From Taiwanofungus camphoratus (taxonomy: Eukaryota > Basidiomycota > Agaricomycetes > Polyporales > Taiwanofungaceae), in contig CP021220.1 in assembly GCA_003999685.1 (NCBI GenBank), positions 558,001-622,000 of the forward strand: a DNA stretch of 64,000 bases, read 5' to 3'. Every line of letters begins with the position of its first letter. Positions within the stretch are counted from its first letter, which is position 1. Positions 6,104 to 29,152 of the stretch are shown piece after piece. Position numbers and translations under genes: made by a program. The notes under the pieces were generated by a model that was not told the DNA's origin, made no database searches, and saw nothing but the letters and a program-made list of their open reading frames with translations.

Positions 6104-6674
6104 TGTTACAAGGCGGTGATGGTGCGAACTTACATTTTCATTTCTCTTCACTATACCGGACTAGCGGGTCGTGTACACTTACAATTATCACCATTATTCC
6201 TGACGGGCTGACCGTCACCCGCTTAGTTATGGACTGTTCCTCAGAAGGGACCACTTGGGCCTCTGACTTATGGACGCTTAGGTGCTGGAACCCGTGGGAG
6301 TGAGGGCTGGCTTGCCCTAAACCCACCATAGTACTTAAGGGGTTGGCTCACCGCGGAGCACCCCAATCTTGTCCTCCTTAGTTACACTGTGTACTTTGGT
6401 GCTGTCGTTACCATTTGTACTTCACGACTGGGCTTAGGCCTCTATACCTTTGTCTATTCAACGGGTCGCCTTAGACCACCTATATCCTTGTGACTACACT
6501 AGGACATAGGCTGTGACTTAGCCCGCAACTCTCTCGAGACCGTTGGGCTAGCGGTTGAAGACTTAGACGTGTACTCGTCGTCAGCCAGGCTGACTCCTCG
6601 TTTACACTTCACGCCTGACTACTCAACGACCCCCCGTCACAGTAGTCACCTACGGGCGTAGACCCCCCGTAACA
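6104..6674 (+). repeat. Left LTR of element A
   Basis: 571 bp, TG...CA ends. It contains the 11-nt tract at 6365-6375 that is complementary to the primer site just inside the LTR, which places the likely transcript start (R) near 6365. Confidence 0.95.
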
Positions 6675-6879: not shown

Positions 6880-9800
6880 ATGGAGAAGTTCCTGGCGATA
6901 GTCTGGAGAGCTATCACCTGGCGAAGAAAATTGAAGGAAGGAAGGGAGGAAGACTACATACCCCGACCGGAAACAACAGAAGAAGCAGCCCTAGGGATCC
7001 CCTGGGATGGACCGCTTACCCCAAGCGACAATGACCTCAGACTTTCTCAGCCCTCCACTGAAGCCCTCGAACAGGGGCAGAGAGGCACAGGCTCCAGGCA
7101 AGGACACCGACACAACCACCCCAATACAGCTCTGACACCTCATCACTGGAAGAAGAGGAGCTGCTACCGACGCAGGAAGCCAGGACACTTGGTCAAGGCA
7201 TGCCCGGAGCCCAGGAAAATCAGAAAGGAAGGACACAGAGACGTGGCCCTAGGGGAAGCTGACGATGAACACGATAATCCACACAAAAGCGAACCCAGAC
7301 TTCCACAACCTTCCAATGATGCCGGGAGAGACAGGGAACTGGAACTGCACCACTCGTCAAACTCAGACGACTTCGCCTTGGAGGAAACCCAGCCATATCC
7401 GGTCCCACCAGCAGACTACTGGAGCAGTGAAGAAACGGAGGAATCCTTAGGAACGTCCACCGTAGAGTCCATTGAACAGAAACGGTTCCCTCATTTTGAG
7501 CACTTCACTGATGCCCCAGGAGGGGAATCATTGGCTGAAGGCACAGGGAAACCTGCGCAAAGAAACTTGGACAAGCCAAAGACCAGTAAGGACCCGACCA
7601 TCTCAATGGGGGCCACAATCACAGGATATCGGAAAGGAACCACTCTGTATGTAGAAGGTTATGTCGTCGCCGGGAAAAAGGCCATCGCTGTGAGACCACT
7701 AATCGATAGCGGAGCCGATGCCAACCTCATACACCCTGACCTTGTGGAACGATGGGGACTGCCCACACGACCGCTACCTCGGAAGGTACGAAGTACGACC
7801 ATTGATGGGACCCCCAACAGGGGTGGACCAATTACCCATCGAGTTGAAGGGAGCATACGGCTTGAAGGGTATGACATACCCACAAACTTCTATGTATCGG
7901 ACATCGGGGACCTCGAAGTAGTGCTGGGCAACCCTTGGTTGATTCAAGTCAACCCGCAGATTGATTGGCCGAAAGGGACCCTCACGGTTGACCCGGACAG
8001 GATTAAGGAATGGCAGGGGTACTATGCTTGGATCATGAACCAGCCTACCACGGACGGCATCCCATTGTGCCGAGCCTCTGCACACGAGGACGATGATGAG
8101 CATGAAACCATCCTATGTGCTTATACAAGGGGAGAAGGGGTCTTAGGCATGTTCAACGATCAACCGGAACCCCTATTCGATGAAATGGGCCTGCTGCAGC
8201 CACCCAAGAAGTCTCAACCATCGTTAGATCGGAACAGCCATGTAAGGGGCTCAAAACGGTTCATAGCCACCGCCAGGCAGACAAGCGCACCACTGACACC
8301 CCCTGAGGAGGGGCCACAGATTGAAGACCTGGTGCCTGAGTACTTACTCGACTACCGGGACCGCTTTGAAAAGGCGGCCGCTGCTCGATTCCCTGGTTCG
8401 AGACCATGGGACCACGCTGTGGAGACAAAGCCTAACTTTGTACCTAGGAAGTGCGGGGTAATTGCATTATCCCTGGCTGAACAAGCAGAGATGGACAAGT
8501 TCCTTGACGAGAACCTGGCGAAAGGATATCTACGGGACTCAAAGTCACCCATGGCCTCCCCAGCATTTTTTGTGGCAAAAAAGGATGGTACACTCAGGCC
8601 CTGTCAGGATTACCGATACCTCAACAACAGCACGGTAAAAGATGCATACCCACTCCCACTCATTGGAGAGCTCATCGACAACCTGCAAAAGGCAACTATA
8701 TTCACGAAGCTGGACCTCCGAAATGGCTACAACAATGTACGCATCAGGGAGGGCGACCAGTGGAAGGGAGCGTTCATGGTGAATCACCACGGAACCAAGA
8801 AGCTAGTTGAACCAACGGTAATGTTCTACGGCATGTGCAATGCCCCGGCCACCTTCCAGCGGCTTATGAATGATGGGTTTCAAGACATGCTTGCGGAAGG
8901 ATGGTTAGCCATTTATATGGACGACATCCTGATCTACTCCAATGATGCTACCATCCACCGAGAACGGACACGCCGGGTACTGCAACGCTTGCAGGAGATG
9001 GACCTCTTTGTGAAACCGGAAAAGTGTGCCTTTGATGTACAAGAAGTTGAGTTTCTGGGAATGACCATCACACCGGGCCACATCCATATGGACACTGGCA
9101 AGCTGCGGGGCATCGATGAATGGCCCATACCGACCAAAGTCAAGGATGTGGAACGATTCCTGGGCCTTGCCAATTACTATCGACGGTTTATACGCGGATT
9201 CTCGGACATCGCCCACCCCCTGAATGCACTTAAGAAAAAGGGGGTAGCTTGGAACTGGTCGAACAAGTGCCAGGCAGCCTTCGAGGCACTTAAATGCCGT
9301 TTTTGTGAGGCCCCAGTACTCACCATGCCCGACCCTGAGAAACCGTTTGTAATCGAGGCCGATGCCTCACTGGTTGCGACAGGTGCAGTACTGCAACAGG
9401 AGGGCCCTGATGGGAAACTTCACCCGGTGGCATTCCTTTCAAAATCGCTGAAGGAAGCAGAACGGAACTATCAGATCTATGATAGAGAACTACTGGCAAT
9501 CGTACGAGCACTTGAGGAATGGCGTCACCACCTGGAAGGCGCAAAGCACCCGGTCACGGTTATAACGGACCACAAGAACCTGACATACTTCAGAGAAGCC
9601 CAACGGCTAACACGACGCCAGGCACGATGGCAACTACTGCTTTCACAGTTTGAATTACGACTGGAGAATCGAAAGGGTAAACGACTTGTAGTGGCGGACG
9701 CCCTATCACGTAGACCAGGACACCCAGGGGGTGAGAGGGACAATGAGGACATTGTCCTCTTACCAGAAACACTGTTTGCAAAGGCAGTTAATGTTGACCT

Positions 9801-11862
9801 CATCGAGCGCATCCGGCAACACCGAAGTCGTGACAGCATGGTCATCGAGACGATTGACGCTTTAAAACGGGGGAAAGTACCACCATTCAAGGGCACTGGA
9901 TTTGCGCACACAACATTGGCTGATTGGGATGTGCAGGATGGATTGATTCTGTACAAAAATCGAATCTACGTACCTCCTAGTGATGACTTGCGCAGAGAAG
10001 TCATTCGACTTTGCCATGACACCCCAGCTATGGCCCATCCAGGAGCACAGGGAACGTTTGCCATTGCTAGAAGGGACTGGTTCTGGGATGGCATGAACAC
10101 GTTTATCGAAAAATACGTGAAAGGCTGCGCCAAATGCCAGGAGAATAAGGTCAACACGCATCCAACACGACCACCAATGCAACCCATCCCAACGGAACCG
10201 AACTCCAGGCCGTTCTCACACATCTCAGTCGACTTCATCACAGACCTGCCAGAATCGCGTGGATCTGACGCACTAATGGTAGTGGTGGACCGAGAACTGT
10301 CCAAAGGGATAGTCCTGGTTCCTTGCAACAAGACCATCGATGCAGTAGGAACAGCCGAGGCACTCCATCAGAACGTTTACCGGCGATATGGGCTACCTGA
10401 CAGAATCATATCGGACCGAGGCCCACAGTTCGCAGCAACGGTGTTCCGGGAGTGGTGCAAGCTGACAGGTGTCAAAGCGGCCATGAGCACTGCCTACCAT
10501 CCGCAGTCTGATGGAAGCACTGAGCGTGTCAATCAGGAACTCGAAGCCGCATGGAGAATCCTGTGTGCCAACAATCCTTATAACTGGGCAAAGTTTATCC
10601 TGGAATTTGAATTCGCACACAATCAGGTGCCACATGCTGGAAGAAGGGAGTCACCATTCAAGCTGATTATGGGATATGATCCAAAGGCAATCGGATCACC
10701 AAAGGCATCGGAAAGGTACCCATCAATCAAGGACCGACTCTTAGCCATCGGAGAGTTCAGAAAGGAAGCACTGGCAGCACAGGATCTAGCTGCGCAGTTG
10801 ATGGCAGAAAGGGCTCGAACCACATGGCAGCCACTTGAGAAGGGGACGCAGGTTTGGCTAGAAGCAACTAACCTCCGCCTAAAGACCCCGAGGAAGTTTT
10901 CCCCAAAGCGAGTGGGACCACTCAAGATAGCCGAAGTCCTAGGACCGCTAACATACAAGCTTCAGCTACCAAGGGCATGGAAGATACATCCAGTATTCCA
11001 TGCATCGCTGTTGACACCATACAGGGAAACCAAGGAACATGGTCCGAACTTCACAAGGCCGCCCCCAGAATTAGTCGATGGCGATGAAGAATACGAAGTC
11101 GAAGCCATTCACGGGCATCGTGCCCAACGTGGGAAATGGCAGTTCCTAATCAAATGGGTTGGATGGCCGAACTCGGCTAATACATGGCAGTCCGAGGCGG
11201 ACTTAAGGAACTCGCCCGACCTTCTGGAGGAATATAAGAAGGTCAACAGGTTGCCTGCAAGGCCCCAGGTCAACGCCCGCTACACCCGGATCTGCAAAGC
11301 TGCATACAACCGACATTCAGTGGAGGCACGGCACTACAATGTCCACTCATACAGACCCCCGACAGCTATCCGTCTACTTGAACCACAGCGCAGCAAGGGT
11401 ACGAGACCTCGCACCCCGAGTACGAGCAAGACACACACGCGCACACCCCTACCGAAACATTCAGGAGACAGTGCCCCCATTGGCAGCGTCCGACGATCCG
11501 TACGATCAGTGGAGACTTGCGCACCGCACGGCCTGGGCCCTGGTGGATGCCGATCTACGGCCAGAAATAGACACCCGGCTGTTGGCTTGGCCAGACCTGT
11601 GGGAGTTGACGAACATTTATCGGACACTGGTCATTGTCGCGCGAGAGGCTGGCAGCTTGGCCACACTCGAACGAAGGCAAACAGGCCTTGGGCCAAATGG
11701 CAACAACCCGACAACGTGGCAGTTGGCCACTCTCCACATAGACGCAAGCCGAGCAGCCCGCAACCTGCTCGCCGTCCTCATGCGCTCCCCTCTAATGGGC
11801 GTCATCGACAACCTGATACCGCCACGACATCAGGCCAGAACACAGGCCCCTTCTGTCAGTGA
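6880..11862 (+). CDS. Pol polyprotein of element A
   Basis: Open frame of 1660 codons. In order: a zinc-knuckle region near residues 95-108, aspartic protease (DSGADAN, about 7.70 kb), reverse transcriptase with YMDD near 8.91 kb, RNase H (ADASLVATGAV, about 9.36 kb), integrase with an HHCC finger (about 10.0-10.14 kb) and a DDE core (SDRGPQF; YHPQSDG), then a chromodomain (about 11.09-11.25 kb). The chromodomain is the mark of chromoviruses and tends to steer insertion to heterochromatin. The last ~200 codons are Arg/Pro/Ser-rich and overlap the accessory frame; they look like an off-frame reading of it rather than a real domain. Confidence 0.93.
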   Translation: MEKFLAIVWRAITWRRKLKEGREEDYIPRPETTEEAALGIPWDGPLTPSDNDLRLSQPSTEALEQGQRGTGSRQGHRHNHPNTALTPHHWKKRSCYRRRKPGHLVKACPEPRKIRKEGHRDVALGEADDEHDNPHKSEPRLPQPSNDAGRDRELELHHSSNSDDFALEETQPYPVPPADYWSSEETEESLGTSTVESIEQKRFPHFEHFTDAPGGESLAEGTGKPAQRNLDKPKTSKDPTISMGATITGYRKGTTLYVEGYVVAGKKAIAVRPLIDSGADANLIHPDLVERWGLPTRPLPRKVRSTTIDGTPNRGGPITHRVEGSIRLEGYDIPTNFYVSDIGDLEVVLGNPWLIQVNPQIDWPKGTLTVDPDRIKEWQGYYAWIMNQPTTDGIPLCRASAHEDDDEHETILCAYTRGEGVLGMFNDQPEPLFDEMGLLQPPKKSQPSLDRNSHVRGSKRFIATARQTSAPLTPPEEGPQIEDLVPEYLLDYRDRFEKAAAARFPGSRPWDHAVETKPNFVPRKCGVIALSLAEQAEMDKFLDENLAKGYLRDSKSPMASPAFFVAKKDGTLRPCQDYRYLNNSTVKDAYPLPLIGELIDNLQKATIFTKLDLRNGYNNVRIREGDQWKGAFMVNHHGTKKLVEPTVMFYGMCNAPATFQRLMNDGFQDMLAEGWLAIYMDDILIYSNDATIHRERTRRVLQRLQEMDLFVKPEKCAFDVQEVEFLGMTITPGHIHMDTGKLRGIDEWPIPTKVKDVERFLGLANYYRRFIRGFSDIAHPLNALKKKGVAWNWSNKCQAAFEALKCRFCEAPVLTMPDPEKPFVIEADASLVATGAVLQQEGPDGKLHPVAFLSKSLKEAERNYQIYDRELLAIVRALEEWRHHLEGAKHPVTVITDHKNLTYFREAQRLTRRQARWQLLLSQFELRLENRKGKRLVVADALSRRPGHPGGERDNEDIVLLPETLFAKAVNVDLIERIRQHRSRDSMVIETIDALKRGKVPPFKGTGFAHTTLADWDVQDGLILYKNRIYVPPSDDLRREVIRLCHDTPAMAHPGAQGTFAIARRDWFWDGMNTFIEKYVKGCAKCQENKVNTHPTRPPMQPIPTEPNSRPFSHISVDFITDLPESRGSDALMVVVDRELSKGIVLVPCNKTIDAVGTAEALHQNVYRRYGLPDRIISDRGPQFAATVFREWCKLTGVKAAMSTAYHPQSDGSTERVNQELEAAWRILCANNPYNWAKFILEFEFAHNQVPHAGRRESPFKLIMGYDPKAIGSPKASERYPSIKDRLLAIGEFRKEALAAQDLAAQLMAERARTTWQPLEKGTQVWLEATNLRLKTPRKFSPKRVGPLKIAEVLGPLTYKLQLPRAWKIHPVFHASLLTPYRETKEHGPNFTRPPPELVDGDEEYEVEAIHGHRAQRGKWQFLIKWVGWPNSANTWQSEADLRNSPDLLEEYKKVNRLPARPQVNARYTRICKAAYNRHSVEARHYNVHSYRPPTAIRLLEPQRSKGTRPRTPSTSKTHTRTPLPKHSGDSAPIGSVRRSVRSVETCAPHGLGPGGCRSTARNRHPAVGLARPVGVDEHLSDTGHCRARGWQLGHTRTKANRPWAKWQQPDNVAVGHSPHRRKPSSPQPARRPHALPSNGRHRQPDTATTSGQNTGPFCQ

Positions 11863-12094
11863 TGGTCCGCCCAACTCTATCACTGGTGGTGCCCCTAGCT
11901 CGACCAGTGGGGGGAACTCCCCCTTCTGCATACGATGCCGACAAATGGGACATTGGAGCCATGACTGCATGCATACCAGTGATGACGATATCCCTTCCGA
12001 CCAGTCTGACACCCTCCGACCACGAGCCAGGGTCAAATCAGAACAAGAGGGGTCAGACGCTGAGGGTTCGATCGTCGGGGCGACGAGTCCTTGA
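11339..12094 (+). CDS. Accessory zinc-knuckle protein of element A (extra 3' ORF)
   Basis: 251 codons in a different frame from pol, starting inside the pol 3' end and stopping 11 bp before the right LTR. A helical middle holds LRPEIDTRLLAWPDL and a C-terminal CX2CX4HX4C zinc knuckle (CIRCRQMGHWSHDC) precedes an acidic tail. Element B has a clearly related protein in the same place (20463-21269), which argues for a real, selected gene. A zinc knuckle suggests nucleic-acid binding, so it may act like an extra nucleocapsid; that is inference. How it would be translated (internal start, spliced or separate RNA) is not visible. Confidence 0.75.
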   Translation: MSTHTDPRQLSVYLNHSAARVRDLAPRVRARHTRAHPYRNIQETVPPLAASDDPYDQWRLAHRTAWALVDADLRPEIDTRLLAWPDLWELTNIYRTLVIVAREAGSLATLERRQTGLGPNGNNPTTWQLATLHIDASRAARNLLAVLMRSPLMGVIDNLIPPRHQARTQAPSVSDGPPNSITGGAPSSTSGGNSPFCIRCRQMGHWSHDCMHTSDDDIPSDQSDTLRPRARVKSEQEGSDAEGSIVGATSP

Positions 12095-12105
12095 GAGGGG
12101 GGTAA

Positions 12106-12676
12106 TGTTACAAGGCGGTGATGGTGCGAACTTACATTTTCATTTCTCTTCACTATACCGGACTAGCGGGTCGTGTACACTTACAATTATCACCATTATT
12201 CCTGACGGGCTGACCGTCACCCGCTTAGTTATGGACTGTTCCTCAGAAGGGACCACTTGGGCCTCTGACTTATGGACGCTTAGGTGCTGGAACCCGTGGG
12301 AGTGAGGGCTGGCTTGCCCTAAACCCACCATAGTACTTAAGGGGTTGGCTCACCGCGGAGCACCCCAATCTTGTCCTCCTTAGTTACACTGTGTACTTTG
12401 GTGCTGTCGTTACCATTTGTACTTCACGACTGGGCTTAGGCCTCTATACCTTTGTCTATTCAACGGGTCGCCTTAGACCACCTATATCCTTGTGACTACA
12501 CTAGGACATAGGCTGTGACTTAGCCCGCAACTCTCTCGAGACCGTTGGGCTAGCGGTTGAAGACTTAGACGTGTACTCGTCGTCAGCCAGGCTGACTCCT
12601 CGTTTACACTTCACGCCTGACTACTCAACGACCCCCCGTCACAGTAGTCACCTACGGGCGTAGACCCCCCGTAACA
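12106..12676 (+). repeat. Right LTR of element A
   Basis: 571 bp, identical by eye to the left LTR. It is preceded by a purine-rich tract (GAGAGGGGGG) that would prime plus-strand synthesis and followed by the target duplicate CTCGT. Confidence 0.95.
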
Positions 12677-14072
12677 CTCGTGGAGCCTCCTTTGAGATGG
12701 AAACGATCCCAGAATCGCTTCCACCTCCCTCATCTGCTGCAGAGGCTTTCATGCCAACTCAGCCATTCATGCCCACCCCTACACCAGAGGTGAGCAGCCC
12801 ACAGAGGGACATTGAGGACAACACGTTTATCGATTTCCCACAGGGGGAGCCTGCACCACATGTCTCGGCGTTACCCGAGGCCATGATGTATGCAACGGCT
12901 CCCAAAGTGCAGGTCTTCCAAGGCACCTGTTCATCACAAGATGAGACTCCAGACTCCCTGCTAGCGGCCATCAGGGAATCGTTGCAACACATCTTGTATA
13001 CTTTGCACGTTGACCAGGATGCGTATTCGCGTATCATACGGAGGGATGTGAATAAGTACCACGCTGAGGCCTACGGACTTGAGTGGAGGGATACAGCACA
13101 AGCCGCTCTGCAGGTGGCCAATCAAATGGTCACTCTGATTGGAGCGGAACATATCGCGGACATTAACGGGATTGGTCACTTGGCTACCCGTGTACGCGAA
13201 CTAGTCGACATTAGGGCGGAGCTGGAATCCACCATTGCCGAACAACGCAAAACTATCGGTGAAATGTCGGTAGCACTCACATCGGTACTCCCTAAACCAT
13301 CGGATCAATGGTTTGAAGGAGCACGCACAACGCTTGGGGCCATTGCGACCTCAACCACAAACGACAGTGGCAAGCTTATTCAAGCTGTCACCACGAACAC
13401 TTCCACCCTACGAGCATTGTCGAAGAGGGTAGAGGGTATAGCCGCCATAGCACCAGGTTACGCTGCCGCTACGGCCTCATCGTCCGCAAAACAGACGCCC
13501 AAACAGGTGCGAATACAATCGCCACCCAACGAAGGACCCAAATCTGCACCGGCAGACAAGGGTAAGAAGCGCGCAGCTCCACCCTCTCCCACGAGGAGTA
13601 GGGCGGCTTCACCCACAGCAAAAAAGGCGAATACTAGACAAGTAATTGACCTTACAGCCGACGATGGTCCCAACTGGGACGACATACGGGGAGCGACAGA
13701 GATCGCGCAAATCGCCCCCAACATTTCTTTGTCGGATGCTTTACGTATCGCACAAGGCATGGCTGCTCCCGCTCAACTGTCATCTCGACAAGGCGATAGC
13801 AGATACACGCTGATACGACCTAGGGGACCCTGGTACCTAGGGAGTGCTCCGCAACGTGGCTGGGGGTAGTGTGATAACTGTGAGGGTGTGAGGGTAGGAG
13901 CTACAACCTGTATGATACCGGGAAACCTGTATGTCTTGTTTTTGTAAGTAGGGGAGTAAGGGGTCAAGGGTCCTGCACAACAGGATCTTGTTCCTAAGTG
14001 TTATACTATCCCTAAGGCCTTGCGAGGCCCTCCAAAGTACGTGAAGTCCTTCGAGATTCTGCGAAGTCCTTC

Positions 14073-14572
14073 TGTTACTGTCGGATAGGACCAGAGACGT
14101 ATTCGTTTTTTCTTTCCCTTTGTTTGTCACACCATGGACGCGCGGCATCCCTTCCACACCTTATTTACCCAGATTGACTGACGGGCCGACCGTCCCCGCT
14201 TACGCCATGGTAGTTATGTACTTTCGGGCCGCTGACTCCTCTCACCTTATGCGGCCTCTGGGGGGCTGCTAGTATACCTGGGGGCTGATGGTGGCAGTAT
14301 AAAGGGGAGTCCCACTGTTGGAGGTTCCCCTAGTCGTATTCTCTTCGTTCATCCTTCCTAAAGTGTACTACGCATTAGTACCAATACACGCTAGTCTTCA
14401 CACATCTCCTTGCACCGCAAGAAGCCCGTAAAAGACTATCGCGACTACATAGGGCTTGTAGTTGAAGACTACCGAGGATCGTGACTTGTCGTCACCGTCG
14501 CTCCTCTTCGACCCTTCGCTGCACACTGCTCCAAGCTTCTGCAGCATTATCAGGGTGAACCCCCCGGTAACA
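14073..14572 (+). repeat. Left LTR of element B
   Basis: 500 bp with TG...CA ends. A TATAAA box at 14298-14303 lies about 34 bp before the 11-nt tract at 14332-14342 that matches the primer site, so promoter and predicted RNA 5' end agree. Confidence 0.95.
14298..14303 (+). promoter_or_regulatory. TATA box in the LTR of element B
   Basis: TATAAA, followed at normal spacing by the predicted transcript start at about 14332. The same arrangement occurs in the right LTR. Confidence 0.7.
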
Positions 14573-14574
14573 CT

Positions 14575-14585
14575 AGAATACGACT
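14575..14585 (+). promoter_or_regulatory. Self-primer binding site of element B
   Basis: Eleven bases, two nt inside the left LTR, are the exact reverse complement of 14332-14342. Length and spacing are the same as in elements A and C, though the sequence is unrelated. This supports Tf1-type self-priming. Confidence 0.78.
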
Positions 14586-15467
14586 CCACAAACCCGAACC
14601 CGTCCTGGTTCGAGAGGTCACAAGAAGACAGTGCCTAAAAGACCCGTACCGGTCTCGAAGAAGGCGAGGTCAGCGTACTCGTAAGATTAGTACTGATCAC
14701 CACGGATTATCAACGACCTTTTGATATCGACTACGAACAAGAAGAAGAGCTGGACCACGCAACATTTGACCCTACTCTCCCGACTCTAGAAGAGGTCCTG
14801 GATCGAGCTGAGCGCAACCTCAGAGCCATTCTCCACGCCGATAGTTCCACCAGCTTCCTCCCAGCTGAACAGAGGGAGCTGATCCTTTACACCCGCTCCC
14901 GCATCTCCAGAGCCAGCGACGCTTGGCAAGCCGTATTAGAAAATCACGACAGGCTGGCAAGTAGGGAAGGGAGCCGACCGCTACCTCCCACTCCCTCTGA
15001 AGATTTTGACGAAATCCTTGACCACCGTATCCTCACTGCTCAGAAGGTGCTCTCAAACCCACGTTTCTCATTTCAGTTGGCCGTCCCCATAATCGTGAAC
15101 CTGTATCAAAGGCTACTGAGCGCCCGAGATTTCTATCGCCGGTGGCAAGCTGGATCCATCCTCCAAAACGAGGCGGAGGTCGACCCTGACGTGCGCCGGG
15201 AAGGCTCATCGCTATCAAGCGGAGAACAATCGGGACGTACACCGACATTACACGAAGACTTCTAACTGGAGGGTCTGCTCAACGCAACCGTGCCCTCACT
15301 GCTACGACTCTGCACTCTACAGGGGAAGTGATTTCGAACCTTGTACTCCAACCAATCGTGCCCTCATCCAGGCCCGCTGGACAACCTTTGACGAAACCGA
15401 CCCACCCTCCGACGAAGGCTCCAGCTCAGAACTAACCGACCCTGACATTGAACGAACAGAACGACAA

Positions 15468-16697
15468 ATGAAGACTGAAGGGACAGGAAAAACATCCCCT
15501 TCCACCCCGGAAACACCCCGTGGCTTGAGCTCTTTCCGATCAGGAATAGGGGAATCGGGGCCACCGCCTGACGATGGGCTGAGGGGGGAAGGCCCCCTCG
15601 AGGGAGGACCACCTTATGACGAGAGTGGAGGACCCCCAGGAGGACCACCTGGCAGAGGAGGACCACCTGGCGGAGGAGGAACACCTGGCGGAGGAGTGCC
15701 CGGTGGAGGAGGACCACCCGGTAGAGGAGGACCACCTGGGGGAGGAGGACCCCCTGGGGGAGGACCCCCTGGAGGGGGGCAGCCGTCTGGAGGAACGCCC
15801 CTCCCACAGGGAGCTGCACGGGTACCGGACCGAAAAGAGCCAGAAATTACTAAGTTCTCTGGAAAGCGAGAGGATGCCCGACACTTCCTCATCCAATTTG
15901 CCCGAAGATTTGACACCGAGCGATGGGCCTCTGCTTCCGAACGAGAGAAGGTCGGCAATTTCCTTGGCCACCTCGAAGGCCATGCTGGTGCCTGGGCCGA
16001 TACTCTCACCGAAAAGGCACTCGAACCCCACCCCCTCATCCGAGGGGTGAGCCGGGGGTACGGCACTTTCAGGAATGTCGCTCTCGAGTTCATCAAAAGG
16101 TTCGGGGTAATAGAGGAGGAGGTCTCTGCAGCCATCGAACTACGGAACTTGGCCTATACCTACGACAAACCCATTGCCGATTTCAACGAGGAGTTCGACC
16201 GACTGGCCCGCAGGGCAGAAATCACCGAAGAAAGTGCCCTTATGGCCTGGTACCGAGAAAAACTACCCAGCACCATGCGAGTCCGAATCATGGAACGAGA
16301 TGTAGCCCCCACAACCCTAGAAGGATGGAAGGAAGCTGCTGCCCAATGGGACCGGGCCTATCGAAACAACAAGGCCATCGATGCCGCTCAAAGAACTTCG
16401 AAAACCCCTCCACGAGTCGCAGCAAGGGCATTTGACAGTGGGAAGCCCGACCATCAGCGCTTGCAAGACCGAAGGACGGGCTCCTGCTACAAATGCCACA
16501 ATAAGGGGCACCTGGCCAAAGACTGCCCAGAGCGAACCTCAGGTCAGGGAACAGGACCCCCAAACCGACGGGCCAACATGAAAGATGAAAACGAGGCGGA
16601 TGATGAAGCCTCTGAGCAGGAGGAGCAGGGGCAAGAAACGAAAGGAGTAAGATTCCCCCACTTCTCTCAGCACCACGACTTTGTGGATTTTCTGTAA
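15468..16697 (+). CDS. Gag protein of element B (main open part)
   Basis: 409 codons. A Gly/Pro-rich repeat comes first. A retrotransposon gag/capsid-like helical domain follows (about 15.83-16.37 kb; FLIQFARRFDTERWA, then ADFNEEFDRLARRA), and then a CX2CX4HX4C zinc knuckle (CYKCHNKGHLAKDC) at about 16.48 kb. The protein packages the element RNA. Gag-like coding potential is also visible from about 14.74 kb, so the gene may begin earlier. Pol follows 11 bp after its stop. Confidence 0.85.
   Translation: MKTEGTGKTSPSTPETPRGLSSFRSGIGESGPPPDDGLRGEGPLEGGPPYDESGGPPGGPPGRGGPPGGGGTPGGGVPGGGGPPGRGGPPGGGGPPGGGPPGGGQPSGGTPLPQGAARVPDRKEPEITKFSGKREDARHFLIQFARRFDTERWASASEREKVGNFLGHLEGHAGAWADTLTEKALEPHPLIRGVSRGYGTFRNVALEFIKRFGVIEEEVSAAIELRNLAYTYDKPIADFNEEFDRLARRAEITEESALMAWYREKLPSTMRVRIMERDVAPTTLEGWKEAAAQWDRAYRNNKAIDAAQRTSKTPPRVAARAFDSGKPDHQRLQDRRTGSCYKCHNKGHLAKDCPERTSGQGTGPPNRRANMKDENEADDEASEQEEQGQETKGVRFPHFSQHHDFVDFL
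15628..15791 (+). repeat. Gly/Pro-rich minisatellite in the gag of element B
   Basis: Tandem, imperfect units of about 9-18 bp built on GGAGGACCACCTGG encode runs of Gly-Gly-Pro-Pro. Such low-complexity linkers vary in length between copies. Confidence 0.8.
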
Positions 16698-16708
16698 GGC
16701 GACCCGAC

Positions 16709-19700
16709 GTGACGCACGAGTCGCCTAAACTCTCTGTACGAAATGTAATTACCGGAACGCGCAAGCGCAATACACTTTATCTACCGGGTTACATCGTCGT
16801 AGGAGAGAAAGCCGTCGCTGCATGCCCCTTATTGGATAGTGGGGCTGACGCCAACCTAATTCACCCCGACTTTGTAAGGAAGTGGGGACTCCCCACTCGA
16901 CCGCTTCCCAGGACAGTAACCTCAACCACCATTGATGGCTCTGCAAACAAAGGGGGACCGATTACCCACAGAGTCGAAGGGAGCATACGATTAGAGGGGA
17001 ATGACATCCCAACCAACTTTTATGTCTCAAACATTGGAACGCTCGATGTAGTACTCGGCAACCCCTGGCTCGCACAAGTCAACCCACGCATCGATTGGGT
17101 AGAAGGAACGCTCGAGATTGACCAAGCTCGACTCACAGAATGGCAAGGATACTATGCCTGGATCATGAGCCAACCCACGACAGACGGAATTCCCCTGTGT
17201 CGAGCTTCCATTCATGAAGACGATGAGGAGCTTTCGGATATAATGTGTGCTTACACACAAGGGGAAGGGGTTCTGGGGATCTTCCAACAGAAAGGGCAGC
17301 CGCTCATACGTGAAGACGGGCTACTGCAGGCCCTAAAGCCCACACAACTAGGGCTCCATCGACTAACACGTTTCCCTGACTCCCCACGTATGGTATGGGA
17401 TGTCCCAGAGCTCACGGAATTGGTGATCCCCAAGGACCCACCCCCATCCGTAGAAGACCTTGTCCCAGAATACCTGTGGGACTATAAACGGTTGTTCGAA
17501 AAGGAGGCTGCCAACCGGTTCCCAGAATCCAAGCCCTGGGACCATGCCATCGAATTAAGGCCAGACTTTGTCCCCAGAAAATGCGCCGTAATTCCTTTGT
17601 CTCCAAATGAACAGGCAGCGATGGACAAATTTTTGGAAGAAAACCTGGCCAAGGGCTATCTCCGAGAATCGAACTCACCAATGGCGTCACCAGCCTTTTT
17701 TGTCAAAAAAAAGGATGGTACCTTGCGCCCGTGCCAGGACTACCGATACCTGAACAAGGGCACGATCAAAGATGCCTACCCCTTACCCCTCATAGGAGAG
17801 CTAATCGACAGGCTCCAAAGGGCCACTGTGTTCACTAAATTAGACCTCCGAAACGGGTACAACAACGTCCAGATCAGAGAGGGCGATCAATGGAAAGGAG
17901 CATTCATGGTCAAACATGGGAATCAGGACAAGATCGTCGAACCCACTGTCATGTTCTTTGGGATGTGCAACTCGCCGGCCACGTTTCAGCGAATGATGAA
18001 TGACGCGTTCCAGGACATGCTGGCCGAGGGGTGGATCGCAATCTATATGGACGACATCCTCATTTTCTCCGACAATATGGAAGTCCACCGAGAACGTACC
18101 AGACGCGTCCTACAACGGCTGCAGGAATGGGATCTATTTGTAAAGCCAGAGAAATGCGCGTTCGATGTCGTCGAAGTTGACTTCTTGGGAATGACCATCT
18201 CACCTGGACAGGTGCACATGGACAAGGACAAACTGGCAGGAATCGCAGATTGGCCCATTCCTACTAGGGTCAAGGATGTGGAACGATTCATGGGTCTCGC
18301 CAACTACTACCGACGCTTCATCCACAACTTCTCCCACATCGCTCACCCCTTGAATGTCATCAAGAAGAAACGCGCGGAGTGGAACTGGACCAAAGCCTGC
18401 CAGGAGGCCTTTGACGAGCTCAAACGGTGTTTCCAGAGCATGCCTATCCTTCGCATGCCCGACCCGTCCAAACCATTCACCATTGAGGCCGACGCCTCTC
18501 TGGTAGCCACTGGTGCAGTGCTTCAACAACTTGATGAAGAAGGGCGGCTACACCCTATAGCTTTCCTCTCGAAGAGCCTGAAAGAAGCGGAGCGGAATTA
18601 TCAAGTATATGACAGAGAGCTGCTGGCCATTGTCCGAGCACTTGAGGAATGGCGCCACCACCTTGAGGGAAGTGGACATCCGGTCACGGTGATCACCGAC
18701 CACAAGAACCTCACCTATTTCCGAGAAGCACAACGACTCAACCGACGCCAGGCCCGATGGCAGTTATTCCTGTCACAATTTGACCTGCAACTATTAAACA
18801 AAAAAGGCAGTCGACTCATAGTCGCCGATGCACTCTCCCGGCGACCTGACCACCCAGGAGGGAAACATGACAACGAAGATGTCATCCTGTTACCAACAGA
18901 CCTCTTTGTCAATGCCACCAACACTGCAATCATCGAAAAGATACGTGAATGTCGTACCCGTGACAGGATGGTCATCGAGACGATTGACGCTTTAAAACGG
19001 GGGAAGGTACCGCCATTCAAGGGCACAGGCTTTGCGCACACAAAGCTGGCAGACTGGGACATTCAGGAGGGACTAATTTTATACAAAAACAGAGTTTACG
19101 TACCCCCTGATGATGATCTGCGCCGAGAAGTCATTCAACTCTGTCATGACACACCAGCAATGGCACACCCAGGGGCACAAGGTACAATGGCCATCACCCG
19201 AAGGGACTGGTTCTGGCATGGAATGTCTTCATTCATCGAGAAATATGTTGAGGGGTGCGCCAAATGCCAGGAGAGCAAGATCAACACACACCCAACGAAA
19301 CCCTCCCTGATGGCCATCCCCACAGAGCAGAACTCAAGGCCATTCTCGCACATATCAGTAGACTTCATCACTGACCTACCAGAGTCACAGGGCTTCAATG
19401 CGCTCATGGTAGTGGTTGACAGAGAACTCACCAAGGGCATTGTGCTCATACCCTGCACCAAGAACATAGATGCGGTAGGGACGGCAGAGGCCCTACACCT
19501 CAATGTATACAGACGATATGGCCTACCTGACCGGATGATATCCGACCGAGGACCACAGTTCGCAGCGGCTGCATTTCGAGAATGGTGTAAGCTGACAGGA
19601 GTCAAGGCGGCAATGTCCACTGCCTACCACCCCCAATCAGATGGGAGTACAGAACGGGTCAACCAGGAACTGGAGGCGGCCTGGAGAATCCTATGCGCAA

Positions 19701-20827
19701 ATGACCCCCACACCTGGGTCAAACACATCCCCGAGTTCGAATTCGCACACAACCAGGTGCCGCATGCTGGAAGGAAGGAATCGCCATTCAAGCTCACCAT
19801 GGGGTACGACCCGAAGGCCATCGGATCTCCACGACCCTCCGACAAATACCCCACGCTCCAAGACCGCCTGACCCAGATCTCCGAATCCCGCAAAGAGGCT
19901 CTTGCAGCGCAAGAGCTAGCCCAAAAGCTGATGGAGGAACGAACCCCTTTTCCCTGGAAACCCTTCCAGGAAGGCGACAAGGTTTGGCTAGAAGCCACGA
20001 ACCTCCGGCTAAGGACAATAAGTCGGAAATTTGACCCAAAACGGCTTGGACCCTTCAAGATCACGGAAGTCAAGGGGCCACTGACGTACAAGCTACAGCT
20101 CCCGAGAACCTGGAAGATTCACCCGGTGTTCCATGCATCGCTGCTCACCCCATACAGGGAAACGGCGGAACACGGACCCAACTTTCTGAAACCACCACCT
20201 GATCTGGTCGAGGGGGAAGAAGAGTACGAAGTCGAGGCCCTCCGCGGGCATCGTGCCCGACGTGGGAAATGGGAGTTTCTCATCAAATGGAAGGGATGGC
20301 CGGTCTCTGCCAGCACCTGGCAGAAGGAAGATGATCTACGGCATTCCCCTGACCTGCTGAGGCGTTATAAGAAGGCAAACCACCTAGGCATCAACCCAGT
20401 CGACAACCGTTCAACCACCCTGCAAGGAGCCACTCCGCAGCACTTCAAAGCCGCCTCCCACCATGTCCCATCGAACCAATGCCGCCCGAGCCCGCCTTGC
20501 CGCCTCCATCCTCACCGCAGGAAATGCCCGCACACTGAATCCCTTTCTTCGGGGACCGCAGAACCTCCCCAACTTCGCCGAGGGGATTGTCGTCCCCCTA
20601 CCTCGCCAAGCAACATCTGGCCTCGCCGCCGACTTTCTGACCCCCGCCGACCGTCTCGGATGGGTGCTGGCCAACGAACGACTACGCCCGGCGGTGGACA
20701 CCGCCCTCGTTGTCTGGCCCGATCTTGCGGCCCAGGTCGCCATTTTTCGACATCAGGCCGAGGTCGTCTTGCACCTCGATCAGGTGATAAGGGGGTACAG
20801 AGGGGAGAGGGAGAAGGGAGAGCATGA
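16709..20827 (+). CDS. Pol polyprotein of element B
   Basis: 1372 codons: aspartic protease (DSGADAN, about 16.84 kb), reverse transcriptase with YMDD near 18.05 kb, RNase H (ADASLVATGAV), integrase (HHCC finger and DDE core with SDRGPQF) and chromodomain (about 20.22-20.37 kb). It is clearly homologous to the pol of element A across the whole length, but diverged at most third positions. The last stretch overlaps the accessory frame and looks like an off-frame reading. Confidence 0.93.
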   Translation: MTHESPKLSVRNVITGTRKRNTLYLPGYIVVGEKAVAACPLLDSGADANLIHPDFVRKWGLPTRPLPRTVTSTTIDGSANKGGPITHRVEGSIRLEGNDIPTNFYVSNIGTLDVVLGNPWLAQVNPRIDWVEGTLEIDQARLTEWQGYYAWIMSQPTTDGIPLCRASIHEDDEELSDIMCAYTQGEGVLGIFQQKGQPLIREDGLLQALKPTQLGLHRLTRFPDSPRMVWDVPELTELVIPKDPPPSVEDLVPEYLWDYKRLFEKEAANRFPESKPWDHAIELRPDFVPRKCAVIPLSPNEQAAMDKFLEENLAKGYLRESNSPMASPAFFVKKKDGTLRPCQDYRYLNKGTIKDAYPLPLIGELIDRLQRATVFTKLDLRNGYNNVQIREGDQWKGAFMVKHGNQDKIVEPTVMFFGMCNSPATFQRMMNDAFQDMLAEGWIAIYMDDILIFSDNMEVHRERTRRVLQRLQEWDLFVKPEKCAFDVVEVDFLGMTISPGQVHMDKDKLAGIADWPIPTRVKDVERFMGLANYYRRFIHNFSHIAHPLNVIKKKRAEWNWTKACQEAFDELKRCFQSMPILRMPDPSKPFTIEADASLVATGAVLQQLDEEGRLHPIAFLSKSLKEAERNYQVYDRELLAIVRALEEWRHHLEGSGHPVTVITDHKNLTYFREAQRLNRRQARWQLFLSQFDLQLLNKKGSRLIVADALSRRPDHPGGKHDNEDVILLPTDLFVNATNTAIIEKIRECRTRDRMVIETIDALKRGKVPPFKGTGFAHTKLADWDIQEGLILYKNRVYVPPDDDLRREVIQLCHDTPAMAHPGAQGTMAITRRDWFWHGMSSFIEKYVEGCAKCQESKINTHPTKPSLMAIPTEQNSRPFSHISVDFITDLPESQGFNALMVVVDRELTKGIVLIPCTKNIDAVGTAEALHLNVYRRYGLPDRMISDRGPQFAAAAFREWCKLTGVKAAMSTAYHPQSDGSTERVNQELEAAWRILCANDPHTWVKHIPEFEFAHNQVPHAGRKESPFKLTMGYDPKAIGSPRPSDKYPTLQDRLTQISESRKEALAAQELAQKLMEERTPFPWKPFQEGDKVWLEATNLRLRTISRKFDPKRLGPFKITEVKGPLTYKLQLPRTWKIHPVFHASLLTPYRETAEHGPNFLKPPPDLVEGEEEYEVEALRGHRARRGKWEFLIKWKGWPVSASTWQKEDDLRHSPDLLRRYKKANHLGINPVDNRSTTLQGATPQHFKAASHHVPSNQCRPSPPCRLHPHRRKCPHTESLSSGTAEPPQLRRGDCRPPTSPSNIWPRRRLSDPRRPSRMGAGQRTTTPGGGHRPRCLARSCGPGRHFSTSGRGRLAPRSGDKGVQRGEGEGRA

Positions 20828-21269
20828 CGAGGCCAAATGGTGGGCCAGCCCCATCCGGGAAATTGGTATATCGTACTGGCAGGCCTGTAATGCTACGCGC
20901 TCCCATCTGAATTTCCTCCTTCGCACCGACGTCGTCTCCGCCCTCGAGCATCTCCTACCACCCTCCTCCGTCTTCACGCGCCCAGCCCCCTCCACGCAGG
21001 ACGAATGGACAGTTTGTCTCCACCCCGAGTGCCGCCCCCTGGACCGATGGGCTGGGGCCTGTGAGTTCTGCATGGGCCTTGATCACGTTGCTGCTGATTG
21101 CATCCACCGGCCACGACTGGGGGAGCCGGCTGTTGAGCCCTTCGTCCCGCCTCGCTGTCTGGATTGCTATGCTGACGATCACGACACCGACCAATGCCCC
21201 AAGGCAGGGGCTGCCTGGTCGGAAATCAGTGGGTCGAAGCAGCCTGACGAGGAAGCTACCAGGTCATGA
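20463..21269 (+). CDS. Accessory zinc-knuckle protein of element B (extra 3' ORF)
   Basis: 268 codons from an ATG inside the pol 3' end, in another frame, stopping 41 bp before the right LTR. It shares with the accessory protein of element A the core LRPxxDTxLxxWPDL and a second helical block ending in LLPP, and it is of similar length. It carries two CX2CX4HX4C zinc knuckles (CEFCMGLDHVAADC and CLDCYADDHDTDQC) where A has one. Conservation between families whose LTRs are unrelated supports function; what it does is unknown. Confidence 0.75.
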   Translation: MSHRTNAARARLAASILTAGNARTLNPFLRGPQNLPNFAEGIVVPLPRQATSGLAADFLTPADRLGWVLANERLRPAVDTALVVWPDLAAQVAIFRHQAEVVLHLDQVIRGYRGEREKGEHDEAKWWASPIREIGISYWQACNATRSHLNFLLRTDVVSALEHLLPPSSVFTRPAPSTQDEWTVCLHPECRPLDRWAGACEFCMGLDHVAADCIHRPRLGEPAVEPFVPPRCLDCYADDHDTDQCPKAGAAWSEISGSKQPDEEATRS

Positions 21270-21310: not shown

Positions 21311-21810
21311 TGTTACTGTCGGATAGGACCAGAGACGTATTCGTTTTTTCTTTCCCTTTGTTTGTCACACCATGGACGCGCGGCATCCCTTCCACACCTT
21401 ATTTACCCAGATTGACTGACGGGCCGACCGTCCCCGCTTACGCCATGGTAGTTATGTACTTTCGGGCCGCTGACTCCTCTCACCTTATGCGGCCTCTGGG
21501 GGGCTGCTAGTATACCTGGGGGCTGATGGTGGCAGTATAAAGGGGAGTCCCACTGTTGGAGGTTCCCCTAGTCGTATTCTCTTCGTTCATCCTTCCTAAA
21601 GTGTACTACGCATTAGTACCAATACACGCTAGTCTTCACACATCTCCTTGCACCGCAAGAAGCCCGTAAAAGACTATTGCGACTACATAGGGCTTGTAGT
21701 TGAAGACTACCGAGGATCGTGACTTGTCGTCACCGTCGCTCCTCTTCGACCCTTCGCTGCACACCGCTCCAAGCTTCTGCAGCATTATCAGGGTGAACCC
21801 CCCGGTAACA
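21311..21810 (+). repeat. Right LTR of element B
   Basis: 500 bp with two visible differences from the left LTR. A purine-rich tract (GAGAGGAGACGGGGG) precedes it and the target duplicate CCTTC follows. Confidence 0.95.
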
Positions 21811-23374: not shown

Positions 23375-24610
23375 ATGGTGGCATGGGATCCAACCCGCCC
23401 ACTAATCACGATCGGGACAGCTACAAATGCTCGGCCCCCACCCGTAATCAAACATGCGACACAACCGGCCCGGGGTGCAAGCCCTAAAACCGTGATTCTC
23501 AGATTCGACCGAGCTCTCGAACTCGGCGATCTCCTAGACCTCGACAACCTCAAGGTAGTCGTCCAACAATTGTTGGCCGGAGCAGGAAACTCCGTCAACT
23601 ATCTTGTCAACGCCATTGTGCCACCTGGCAACGGGGAGGTACATTTGGTATGCAGTGAACGCCCTACTACAATAGAATTGGGCGCCCTCAGAGCCGGCAT
23701 GGGACAACTAGTCGCTCCTCATGTGGCACCGGATGGAATGAATCCAGTTGGGCTTACGCTCGACTGGGCTCATGTTATCACCCAGATGGCGATCAAGGCG
23801 TTCCCGTTGTACCGGGACGGAACCAGGATCGAATACACACCGCTCGAAATCTTCCAAGAACTCGTGCGAAACAATGAATGGGCGGAGGATGTAGTCCTAC
23901 ACCCACACCACTCGCCTAAGGCTCGGTATCAATCAGCCTCAGGCGGCAGTGGCTTATTTATATTTGCCATATTCGACACCCAGTCTGGTTCTACGGCCAT
24001 CCGGATCATGAAGAAACCGATACGCCTGTTCGGCAAGACGTATCGATTACAACCATGGATTGAGACGTCAGCCGTCCCGATCTGTCTCAGGTGCTGGCGA
24101 TGGGGCCACATTGCCCCATTATGCCAGTCGGCTCATGAGTGTTGCGTCAAGTGTGGCGAACCTCATATATTGACATTACACGAGGAACAAGCCTCGTGCT
24201 GTGCACAAAGAAGGGCGGCAATGTCGGTGAAAACCATTGCGTGCCCACCTGAACACGCCAGTTGTCCGAACTGTGGCAAAACTGGTGAAGATGGACACCA
24301 AGCGGATTCGCCCAAATGTCAGTGGGCAAAGAAGCGACGTGACCAACAGTGGCATAAGGCCCACCCGCCGGTGGTGTCTGTTGCTAAAGGAAGGGCGGCA
24401 GCAGCGAAAGCTGCCACCAGAGGAAAGCTGCATGGCCTGTCTGAAAAGGCACGAGGCAAACAACCTGCTCGGCCTGGACCCTTGGGCGAGTCATTTGAGA
24501 TCACGGACCCTTCCGATGGTGAAGGTGCATCTGGTCATGAAAGCGGTGAGGTCCATTCCAGTGACTCAAGCACGCCCAGGCCTCGAGGAGTTGGAGGATC
24601 GGCCGCATAA
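23375..24610 (+). pseudogene. LINE ORF1, C-terminal part with zinc knuckles
   Basis: Open frame of about 411 codons with no good ATG at its start (first codon GTG, a stop just upstream), as expected if it was cut off from the N-terminal half by the spacer. It begins WDPTRPLITI, continues into a conserved ORF1 core (VILRFDRALELGDLL), and has zinc knuckles: CLRCWRWGHIAPLC, then CVKCGEPH and CPNCGKTGEDGH. It ends with an acidic Ser-rich tail. ORF1 proteins coat the LINE RNA. ORF2 starts about 20 bp downstream, a tight spacing that suggests termination-reinitiation or a similar link. Confidence 0.8.
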
Positions 24611-27600: not shown

Positions 27601-27814
27601 CGCGGCGAGTTCACGAAGGGCACCCAATGAGGGCCGCTCTTTCACCTTATTGGGCGACCAACGTCACCAATATCACTGCGCCATGGCCGCTTAACTCGCG
27701 ACGTGGCAAAAAACAGGTTGTCACCCCCATGACGTTCATAGATCGCATCGGGCGGCAGTCATCAGAAGACTTTGCACCACTCCACCCGGAGGCGCGGCCC
27801 GGTGATCGGGTCGT

Positions 27815-28396: not shown

Positions 28397-29152
28397 TCAA
28401 GGACTCGTCGCCCCGACGATCGAACCCTCAGCGTCTGACCCCTCTTGTTCTGATTTGACCCTGGCTCGTGGTCGGAGGGTGTCGGACTGGTCGGAAGGGA
28501 TATCGTCATCACTGGTATGCATGCAGTCATGGCTCCAATGTCCCATTTGTCGGCATCGTATGCAGAAGGGGGAGTTCCCCCCACTGGTCGAGCTAGGGGC
28601 ACCACCAGTGATAGAGTTGGGTGGACCATCACTGACAGAAGGGGCCTGTGTTCTGGCCTGATGTCGTGGCGGTATCAGGTTGTCTATGACGCCCATTAGA
28701 GGGGAGCGCATGAGGACGGCGAGCAGGTTGCGGGCTGCCCGGCTTGCATCCATGTGGAGAGTGGCCAACTGCCACGTCGTCGGGTTGTTGCCATTTGGCC
28801 CAAGGCCTGTTTGCCTTCGTTCGAGTGTGGCCAAGCTGCCAGCCTCTCGCGCGACAATGACCAGTGTCCGATAAATGTTCGTCAACTCCCACAGGTCTGG
28901 CCAAGCCAACAGCCGGGTGTCTATTTCTGGCCGTAGATCGGCATCCACCAGGGCCCAGGCAGTGCGATGCGCAAGCCTCCACTGATCGTATGGATCGTCG
29001 GACGCTGCCAATGGGGGCACTGTCTCCTGAATGTTTCGGTATGGGTGTGCGCGTGTGTGCCTTGCTCGTACTCGGGGTGCGAGGTCTCGTACCCTTGCTG
29101 CGCTGTGGTTCAAGTAGACGGATAGCCATCGGGGGTCTGTATGAGTGGACAT
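28397..29152 (-). CDS. Accessory zinc-knuckle protein of element C
   Basis: 251 codons, almost identical to the accessory protein of element A, with the same CX2CX4HX4C knuckle and the same overlap with pol. That it stays open in both copies of the family supports it being a genuine part of the element. Confidence 0.75.
   Translation of the reverse strand: MSTHTDPRWLSVYLNHSAARVRDLAPRVRARHTRAHPYRNIQETVPPLAASDDPYDQWRLAHRTAWALVDADLRPEIDTRLLAWPDLWELTNIYRTLVIVAREAGSLATLERRQTGLGPNGNNPTTWQLATLHMDASRAARNLLAVLMRSPLMGVIDNLIPPRHQARTQAPSVSDGPPNSITGGAPSSTSGGNSPFCIRCRQMGHWSHDCMHTSDDDIPSDQSDTLRPRARVKSEQEGSDAEGSIVGATSP

What the first reader, a model, noticed from the sequence alone, without database searches (positions are those of the whole stretch)
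11339..21269. A conserved extra zinc-knuckle gene at the 3' end of two chromovirus families
Seen: element A (11339-12094), its sister copy C (28397-29152) and the distinct element B (20463-21269) each carry, after the integrase/chromodomain and in another frame overlapping the pol end, a 250-270-residue ORF with C-terminal CX2CX4HX4C knuckle(s). The A and B proteins share a core (LRPxxDTxLxxWPDL and a second block ending in LxPP) although their LTRs are unrelated. Known: Tf1/sushi-type elements normally encode Gag and Pol only, with the knuckle in Gag. Inference: this is a real third gene, possibly a nucleic-acid chaperone, packaging factor or integration-site factor. I know of no description of it.
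Basis: partly seen in the sequence, partly recalled or inferred. Interest (0 to 1): 0.8.

Follow-up and report, generated by a model that had tools for sequence, protein, structure and literature searches.

The report
Third zinc-knuckle gene in fungal retrotransposons
Several families of virus-like jumping elements in this fungal genome carry a real but apparently uncharacterised third gene after their enzyme gene, encoding a protein with zinc knuckles that probably binds nucleic acid, and one of these families has spread without the capsid part of its own shell gene.

Summary
A and B share a core (Smith-Waterman 131; 0 of 1000 shuffles as good). ORF3 is under purifying selection: dN/dS 0.13-0.30 where it overlaps pol and 0.19-0.50 beyond it over 8 comparisons, highest against the most decayed copy. 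The overlapping pol frame is no better conserved than the unused third frame. So ORF3 is a gene and the pol tail is its shadow.

Two things were missed. First, element A, its sister C and older A-type elements lack a capsid domain: 18 of 18 A copies that could be measured have the same short LTR-to-knuckle distance. B has gag, pol and ORF3. Second, two further families (D, E) carry post-pol zinc-knuckle ORFs. In 12 sampled E copies that ORF lies in all three frames relative to pol with one ATG, arguing for an independent cistron.

ORF3 resembles no Gag capsid, Env or solved fold; the models are poor. Best reading: an RNA-binding accessory protein acting on the element's own RNA; this is inferred. 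A 2010 figure legend mentions an 'additional ORF' in fungal elements; I found no characterisation.

The parts
6104..6674 (+). element A, 5' LTR (571 nt)
   Evidence: 100% identical to 12106-12676; 5-bp target-site duplication CTCGT
6880..11862 (+). element A, 5' ORF: about 95 residues, nucleocapsid-type knuckle, protease, RT, RNase H, integrase, chromodomain; no capsid domain
   Evidence: Pfam; knuckle at residue 95. This window copy has a Cys-to-Arg change in that knuckle that no other copy listed shows; 36 exact copies elsewhere have it intact
11339..12094 (+). element A, ORF3 (251 aa): predicted helical core plus one C-terminal CX2CX4HX4C knuckle; +1 frame relative to pol, overlap 11339-11862
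   Evidence: dN/dS; low-confidence model
12106..12676 (+). element A, 3' LTR
14073..14572 (+). element B, 5' LTR
   Evidence: 99.6% identical to the 3' LTR; TSD CCTTC
15468..16697 (+). element B, gag (409 aa from ATG; capsid plus knuckle); frame open and conserved from 15120
   Evidence: PF03732 and PF00098 above cut-off; dN/dS 0.13, upstream extension 0.12-0.24
16709..20827 (+). element B, pol (PR-RT-RH-IN-chromodomain)
20463..21269 (+). element B, ORF3 (268 aa): predicted helical core plus two CX2CX4HX4C knuckles; +1 frame relative to pol, overlap 20463-20827
   Evidence: dN/dS; low-confidence model
21311..21810 (+). element B, 3' LTR
28397..29152 (-). element C (second copy of A; LTRs 27815-28385 and 33815-34385), ORF3
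   Evidence: TSD GTCGT
28629..33611 (-). element C, 5' ORF (same layout as A; knuckle intact)

Best explanation
Shown: ORF3 is a third, protein-coding gene of these chromoviruses (LTR retrotransposons of the Ty3/gypsy type), kept by selection; in family E its ATG is kept while its frame relative to pol is not. Inferred: it makes a small RNA-binding accessory protein whose zinc knuckle(s) grip the element's own genomic RNA, with the helical core (A, B) or other N-terminal part (D) as partner-binding or multimerising module. It would promote nuclear export, packaging or reverse transcription of that RNA. Production from a separate, probably spliced, 3' mRNA is inferred. In the A lineage the capsid domain is gone, so capsids must come from another element (inferred) or from ORF3 itself (less likely). 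What A keeps (knuckle, enzymes, chromodomain, ORF3) would then be the set that has to act on its own RNA.
For: Gene: dN/dS 0.13-0.30 in the overlap and 0.19-0.50 outside it, with the pol frame (37-60% identity) never better conserved than the third frame (43-63%) in 8 of 8 comparisons; D 0.23, E 0.24. Yardsticks: RT-RH 0.04-0.06, gag 0.13. Own start: the ORF3 Met is present in 8 of 8 A and 30 of 30 B copies read, with stops in the same frame upstream. Among 12 sampled E copies the ORF3 frame relative to pol is 0 in 3, 1 in 3, 2 in 6, with the same ATG 40-48 nt after the pol stop. Nucleic-acid binding: a CX2CX4HX4C motif in all four families; D scores 32.9 bits against PF00098's cut-off of 20.8; of 11 solved structures hit by the A/B profile the top 3, and 5 in all, are retroviral Gag or nucleocapsid (best E 0.0067, the only one below 0.01). 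Capsid-less A: 18 of 18 measurable copies have LTR-to-knuckle distances of 1053-1058 nt, and older A-type elements L041, L042 and L044 have the same layout. Precedent: the CERV protein of the C. elegans LTR retrotransposon Cer1, made from a spliced mRNA, needs its cysteine loop for export of genomic RNA from the nucleus (PMC10309623, passages read).
Against: No transcript, protein or binding data. A's knuckle is below the Pfam cut-offs (17.7 of 20.8 bits); B and E have no Pfam match. ORF3 of A and B is not basic overall (pI 7.2 and 5.8), unlike typical nucleocapsid proteins (recalled); D and E are (9.6, 9.2). The D core shows no homology to B or A (668 and 496 of 1000 shuffles as good; only the knuckle aligns), so 'one gene in four families' may be two independent gains. 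Two older copies, L049 and L050, have lost the ORF3 Met. dS is above 1 in 13 of the 16 estimates, so the ratios are rough. No conserved splice donor was seen by eye in the A-type leaders. Gag already supplies a knuckle in B and D, so a second one is not obviously needed.
Confidence: 0.5

Rival explanations
1. ORF3 is a Gag-like capsid protein (a relocated or second Gag), which would explain how the A lineage does without the usual capsid.
For: Size (251-268 aa) and order (helical part, then knuckle) resemble Ty3 Gag (recalled). A lacks the usual capsid and still spread. The B model has a helical core at residues 61-166.
Against: Profile comparison with Gag has probability 19.9% (E 0.0011 for this single comparison) over 101 columns that end in the knuckle. 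Cores without the knuckle: 507 of 1000 (B against gagB) and 346 of 1000 (D against gagD) shuffles score as well, while the control gagB against gagD gives 1 of 1000. Foldseek finds no match below E 0.5 in the PDB or viral libraries, but model confidence is low (mean pLDDT 46.3 and 44.5). B and D keep a gag beside ORF3, and E's ORF3 (84 aa) is too short for a capsid.
Confidence: 0.12
2. ORF3 is a DNA- or chromatin-facing factor: an integration-site or anti-silencing protein working beside the chromodomain.
For: It lies next to the integrase-chromodomain end. Plant Retand elements carry post-pol antisense ORFs with a predicted DNA-binding domain (PMC11963269, passages read). CCHC knuckles can bind single-stranded DNA (recalled).
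Against: No DNA-binding domain other than the knuckle was found by Pfam. Knuckles of this spacing mostly bind RNA or single-stranded nucleic acid (recalled). No insertion-site preference was tested.
Confidence: 0.2
3. ORF3 is a C-terminal extension of Pol made by frameshift or stop readthrough, not a separate protein.
For: In A and B ORF3 is +1 to pol, the direction Ty3 uses (recalled). In D, 4 of 5 copies read are in frame with pol across one stop.
Against: In E the relation to the pol frame is not kept (0, 1 and 2 in 3, 3 and 6 of 12 copies) while the ATG is; 1 of 5 D copies is out of frame. In A and B the ORF3 frame has stops upstream of an ATG present in 38 of 38 copies read. The pol tail that would be shared is unconstrained.
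Confidence: 0.08
4. The ORF is a chance or shadow ORF kept open by selection on pol.
For: It overlaps pol for 524 nt (A) and 365 nt (B).
Against: The overlap is better conserved in the ORF3 frame than in the pol frame in 8 of 8 comparisons, and the part outside pol has dN/dS 0.19-0.50. In the 17 D and E junctions read, ORF3 starts after the pol stop.
Confidence: 0.02

Closest known systems
Chromoviruses (chromodomain Ty3/gypsy LTR retrotransposons) of basidiomycetes
   Same: LTRs with 5-bp TSD, PR-RT-RH-IN-chromodomain order; gag with a knuckle in B.
   Different: An extra sense gene after pol. Most full-length fungal elements in the 2010 survey had one or two ORFs; its figure legend allows an 'add. 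ORF' of unknown function (PMC2864245, section 5 read). Which clade A, B, D and E belong to was not tested.
CERV of Cer1 (C. elegans LTR retrotransposon; Ty3/gypsy type is recalled)
   Same: Accessory, non-Env protein of an LTR element; cysteine-rich putative zinc finger; acts on genomic RNA (PMC10309623, passages read).
   Different: CERV has a possible C4-type finger and other domains; no sequence comparison was made. Spliced origin is shown there, only inferred here.
Post-pol ORF3s of bdelloid rotifer LTR elements and aORFs of plant LTR elements (Retand, Grande, RIRE2)
   Same: Extra ORF between pol and the 3' LTR (PMC5408684, PMC7264820, PMC11963269; passages read).
   Different: In the passages read those are Env-like, esterase, exonuclease, coiled-coil or transmembrane types, or antisense ORFs with a predicted DNA-binding domain. 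The rotifer paper mentions a Zn knuckle in the Juno elements, whose place I did not read; no passage gives a knuckle to an ORF3.
Retroviral nucleocapsid zinc knuckles (PF00098)
   Same: CX2CX4HX4C pattern; D passes the Pfam cut-off.
   Different: Here the knuckle sits in a separate 3' gene with an unrelated N-terminal part, in addition to a Gag-type knuckle.
BARE-2-like Gag-deficient but Pol-coding elements (recalled; the name only occurs as a counted term in the listing)
   Same: A coding element that must obtain capsid elsewhere.
   Different: In A the capsid domain itself is absent, and ORF3 is kept.

Membership tests
Chromovirus (Ty3/gypsy) | RT, RNase H and integrase in that order, chromodomain after integrase | tested here: met
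   Pfam above cut-off for A and B; D by similarity to polA and polB
Chromovirus (Ty3/gypsy) | LTRs and target-site duplication | tested here: met
   A, B and C with 5-bp TSDs; D LTRs 477 nt identical, TSD not checked; E LTRs not checked
Chromovirus (Ty3/gypsy) | Gag with capsid domain | tested here: inconclusive
   Met for B (PF03732); D gag has no PF03732 match at E 0.1 but resembles gagB; not met for A, C and A-type relatives
CCHC zinc-knuckle protein (PF00098) | CX2CX4HX4C motif / Pfam gathering score | tested here: inconclusive
   Motif in 38 of 38 A and B copies read; score above cut-off in D only, below in A, no match in B or E
Gag / capsid protein | homology to Retrotrans_gag or capsid fold | tested here: not met
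   sequence; fold searches without significant match but on low-confidence models
Envelope protein | transmembrane segment | tested here: not met
   highest 19-residue Kyte-Doolittle mean 1.42 among A, B, D, E
CERV-like RNA export protein | needed for nuclear export of genomic RNA | not testable with these tools
   needs RNA localisation data

The most novel reading that the evidence does not exclude
Post-pol zinc-knuckle proteins are a general accessory gene of basidiomycete chromoviruses, gained at least once and perhaps twice. They let an element's RNA be recognised and carried apart from Gag, which allowed the A lineage to shed its capsid and live on other elements' capsids while keeping its enzymes and its ORF3.
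Probability: 0.25. Interest if true: 0.75.

Novelty: new variant of a known kind. Interest (0 to 1): 0.6.

Why it matters
LTR retrotransposons of fungi are usually annotated as gag plus pol. A conserved third gene, present in four high-copy families of one genome, would change how these elements are annotated and gives a testable candidate for RNA export or packaging in fungal elements. The capsid-less but otherwise coding A lineage, with 18 measured copies of the same form, is a natural case for asking which functions an element must carry itself and which it can borrow.

Tried and rejected
Homologues outside this genome: viral contigs with ORF3 of A/B and of D, and genome contigs with ORF3 of A/B, matched patterns but gave no confirmed relative; these collections are viral and prokaryotic, so this says little. 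A second genome-contig scan was allowed and not used.

Capsid idea: tested by hhalign, shuffles, two structure models and Foldseek on the first of them; nothing supports it, but the models are poor.

Readthrough in D: suggested by the same-frame stop, rejected after the frames in E were read.

A broken nucleocapsid knuckle as a feature of the A family: my first reading, rejected, because of the 42 places listed only the window copy shows it.

Homology of the D core to the A/B core: not found.

A further gypsy locus as a control without ORF3 (L072; pol about 29% identical): its integrase frame ends early and its 3' end was not seen, so it says nothing. I have no chromovirus family shown to lack ORF3.

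First knuckle count was wrong for minus-strand loci; corrected.

Rows left out: of the six A-type loci L043 and L044 were not used (start anchors uncertain), pooled E used 9 of 12 copies (L065 and L066 broken, L067 compared alone). E junctions are 12 copies, 11 of them picked by me from the 78 listed; D junctions are 5, 4 picked by me. In one search one distance (2030) and two LTR spacings (6974) are cross-pairings of neighbouring elements and were dropped; 24 of the 42 knuckle places had no scored LTR to pair with, having scored 40 of 225 candidates.
Full report
What was checked. The window is a stretch of a 33.2 Mb, 15-contig genome. The size and contig number remind me of Heterobasidion irregulare; this is recall, not a test, and 'basidiomycete' rests on it too. 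They lie between a chromovirus pol gene (RT, RNase H, integrase, chromodomain) and the 3' LTR of elements with near-identical LTRs and 5-bp target-site duplications (A CTCGT, C GTCGT, B CCTTC), so the elements are young insertions.

Is it a gene? Yes, within this genome. I compared A with 4 of 6 older A-type loci (L041, L042, L045, L050) and B with L046-L049. In the part of ORF3 that overlaps pol, dN/dS in the ORF3 frame was 0.132, 0.144, 0.229, 0.297 (A) and 0.148, 0.153, 0.150, 0.182 (B). Beyond the pol stop it was 0.244, 0.289, 0.342, 0.499 (A) and 0.192, 0.196, 0.281, 0.250 (B). The highest values belong to L050, whose ORF3 holds 10 stops. dS is above 1 in 13 of these 16 estimates, so the ratios are rough (simple Nei-Gojobori counting). 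In the overlap, amino-acid identity in the ORF3 frame was 0.59-0.76, in the pol frame 0.37-0.60 and in the unused third frame 0.43-0.63; the pol frame was never above the third frame. So pol is the unconstrained partner after the chromodomain. By the same method RT-RNase H gave 0.04-0.06, gag capsid-knuckle 0.13 and a chromodomain stretch 0.13. ORF3 evolves somewhat faster than gag and much faster than RT.

Element A has no capsid. In A the 5' ORF starts about 200 nt after the LTR and runs 94 residues before a nucleocapsid-type knuckle and then the protease. There is no Retrotrans_gag match, whereas B has one. Forty LTR places (of 225 candidates) and 42 knuckle places could be paired in 18 A-family copies; all 18 distances were 1053-1058 nt. 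LTR pairs were 5976-6002 nt apart in 16 of 18; two others were 5523 and 6511. Older A-type elements L041, L042 and L044 have the same layout: LTR pairs 94-98% identical, 205-259 nt from LTR to the start of the 5' ORF, and no match to the capsid part of gagB. The capsid-less form is therefore a form that has been copied, and the loss predates the A/A-type split. In the window copy A one knuckle cysteine is changed; 36 exact copies elsewhere, sister C among them, have it intact.

Two more families. A weak gag match led to family D (L053; pol 45-49% identical to B and A). It has gag, pol, identical 477-nt LTRs and, after pol, a 483-aa ORF with two knuckles (CX2CX4HX4C and CX2CX6HX4C), present in 37 full-length matches at 84-100%, 23 of them stop-free. 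A search with that ORF led to family E: a chromodomain pol end followed by an 84-aa ORF with the same pair of knuckles, 78 matches at 62-100%. E's LTRs and gag were not checked. D scores above the Pfam knuckle cut-off (32.9 against 20.8 bits); E has no match. dN/dS was 0.23 for D against L055, 0.24 pooled over 9 of 12 E copies and 0.24 for L058 against L067. D was found through gag, not through ORF3, so it is an unbiased hit; E was not.

How it is expressed. In 12 E copies I looked at the junction: the pol stop is followed after 40-48 nt by the same ATG, but length changes put ORF3 in frame 0 (3 copies), 1 (3) or 2 (6) relative to pol. That argues strongly against readthrough or programmed frameshift in E and for independent initiation. 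D is in frame in 4 of 5. In A and B the ORF3 Met is present in 8 of 8 and 30 of 30 copies with stops upstream in the same frame; of the older copies L049 and L050 have lost the Met. How a ribosome reaches an ATG several kilobases from the 5' end is not shown; a spliced or separate 3' mRNA is the usual answer for such genes and is my inference.

What it makes. A and B share a core that is not found in D; D and E share the double knuckle (33-52% identity). Outside the knuckles, ORF3 of B and D does not resemble Gag capsid. None of A, B, D or E has a likely transmembrane segment. The low-confidence models (mean pLDDT 46.3 for B, with one block of ten residues at 87, and 44.5 for A) show a helical core, and the B model matches nothing significantly in the PDB or viral libraries. 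What is common to the four families is the zinc knuckle. Of 11 solved structures that the A/B profile hits weakly, the top 3 and 5 in all are retroviral Gag or nucleocapsid; the rest are splicing factor SLU7, LIN-28, RECQL4 and CLIP1. The best-supported function is therefore binding of nucleic acid, most likely the element's own RNA. Cer1's CERV shows that such an accessory protein can be needed for nuclear export of genomic RNA (PMC10309623, passages read). Against this, ORF3 of A and B is neutral to acidic (pI 7.2, 5.8) and their knuckles are weak by Pfam.

Known or new. Extra ORFs between pol and the 3' LTR are known in plants and rotifers (PMC7264820, PMC11963269, PMC5408684; passages read). 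For fungi, a 2010 survey says most full-length elements have one or two ORFs and its Figure 3 legend lists an 'add. ORF ... with unknown function' (PMC2864245, section 5 and passages read). Passages of a 2011 survey say LTR elements usually encode two ORFs and mention nested complex elements with additional domains (PMC3248453). Nine literature searches listed no paper whose title or abstract start describes a post-pol zinc-knuckle gene in fungal chromoviruses; several listings showed only part of the papers found (for example 20 of 209, 10 of 535), and subscription journals and supplements were not searched. I call it a new variant of a known kind.

Limits. One genome; no other fungal genome could be searched; no chromovirus family lacking ORF3 was found as a contrast; counts in the genome are lower bounds; function and expression are untested.

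Noticed in passing
window 14639-15265 (+), element B: A further ORF between the 5' LTR and gag (208 aa stop to stop), 77% identical over 180 codons in L046 with dN/dS 0.144, no Pfam match, no in-frame ATG; an ACG in a CACCACGG context is shared with L046 and L047 (in L047 the frame is broken). The gag frame, +1 to it, is open and conserved from 15120 to the gag ATG, so the two may form one product by frameshift or splicing.
   Followed up: partly
L053 (C14:1247500-1256000), minus strand: Chromovirus family D with gag, pol and a 483-aa post-pol ORF with two knuckles; 37 full-length matches in the genome.
   Followed up: yes
L056-L067: Family E: 84-aa double-knuckle ORF 40-48 nt after the pol stop, in all three frames relative to pol among 12 copies; 78 matches.
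   Followed up: partly
window 12697-13869 (+): A 390-aa ORF between elements A and B with no Pfam match; a 19-residue piece of it recurs in L043.
   Followed up: no
window 23375-27839 (+): Looks like a non-LTR element: a 411-aa ORF with cysteine-rich motifs but no Pfam match, then endonuclease (PF14529, PF03372) and, by eye, reverse-transcriptase-like ORFs; element C starts inside the last of them.
   Followed up: no
genome-wide: Stops inside decayed copies are mostly TGA, which would fit C-to-T mutation of CGA codons (methylation or RIP-like); not tested.
   Followed up: no
LTRs of A and B (6200-6225 and 14178-14202): A 26-nt block, 92% identical, inside otherwise unrelated LTRs.
   Followed up: no
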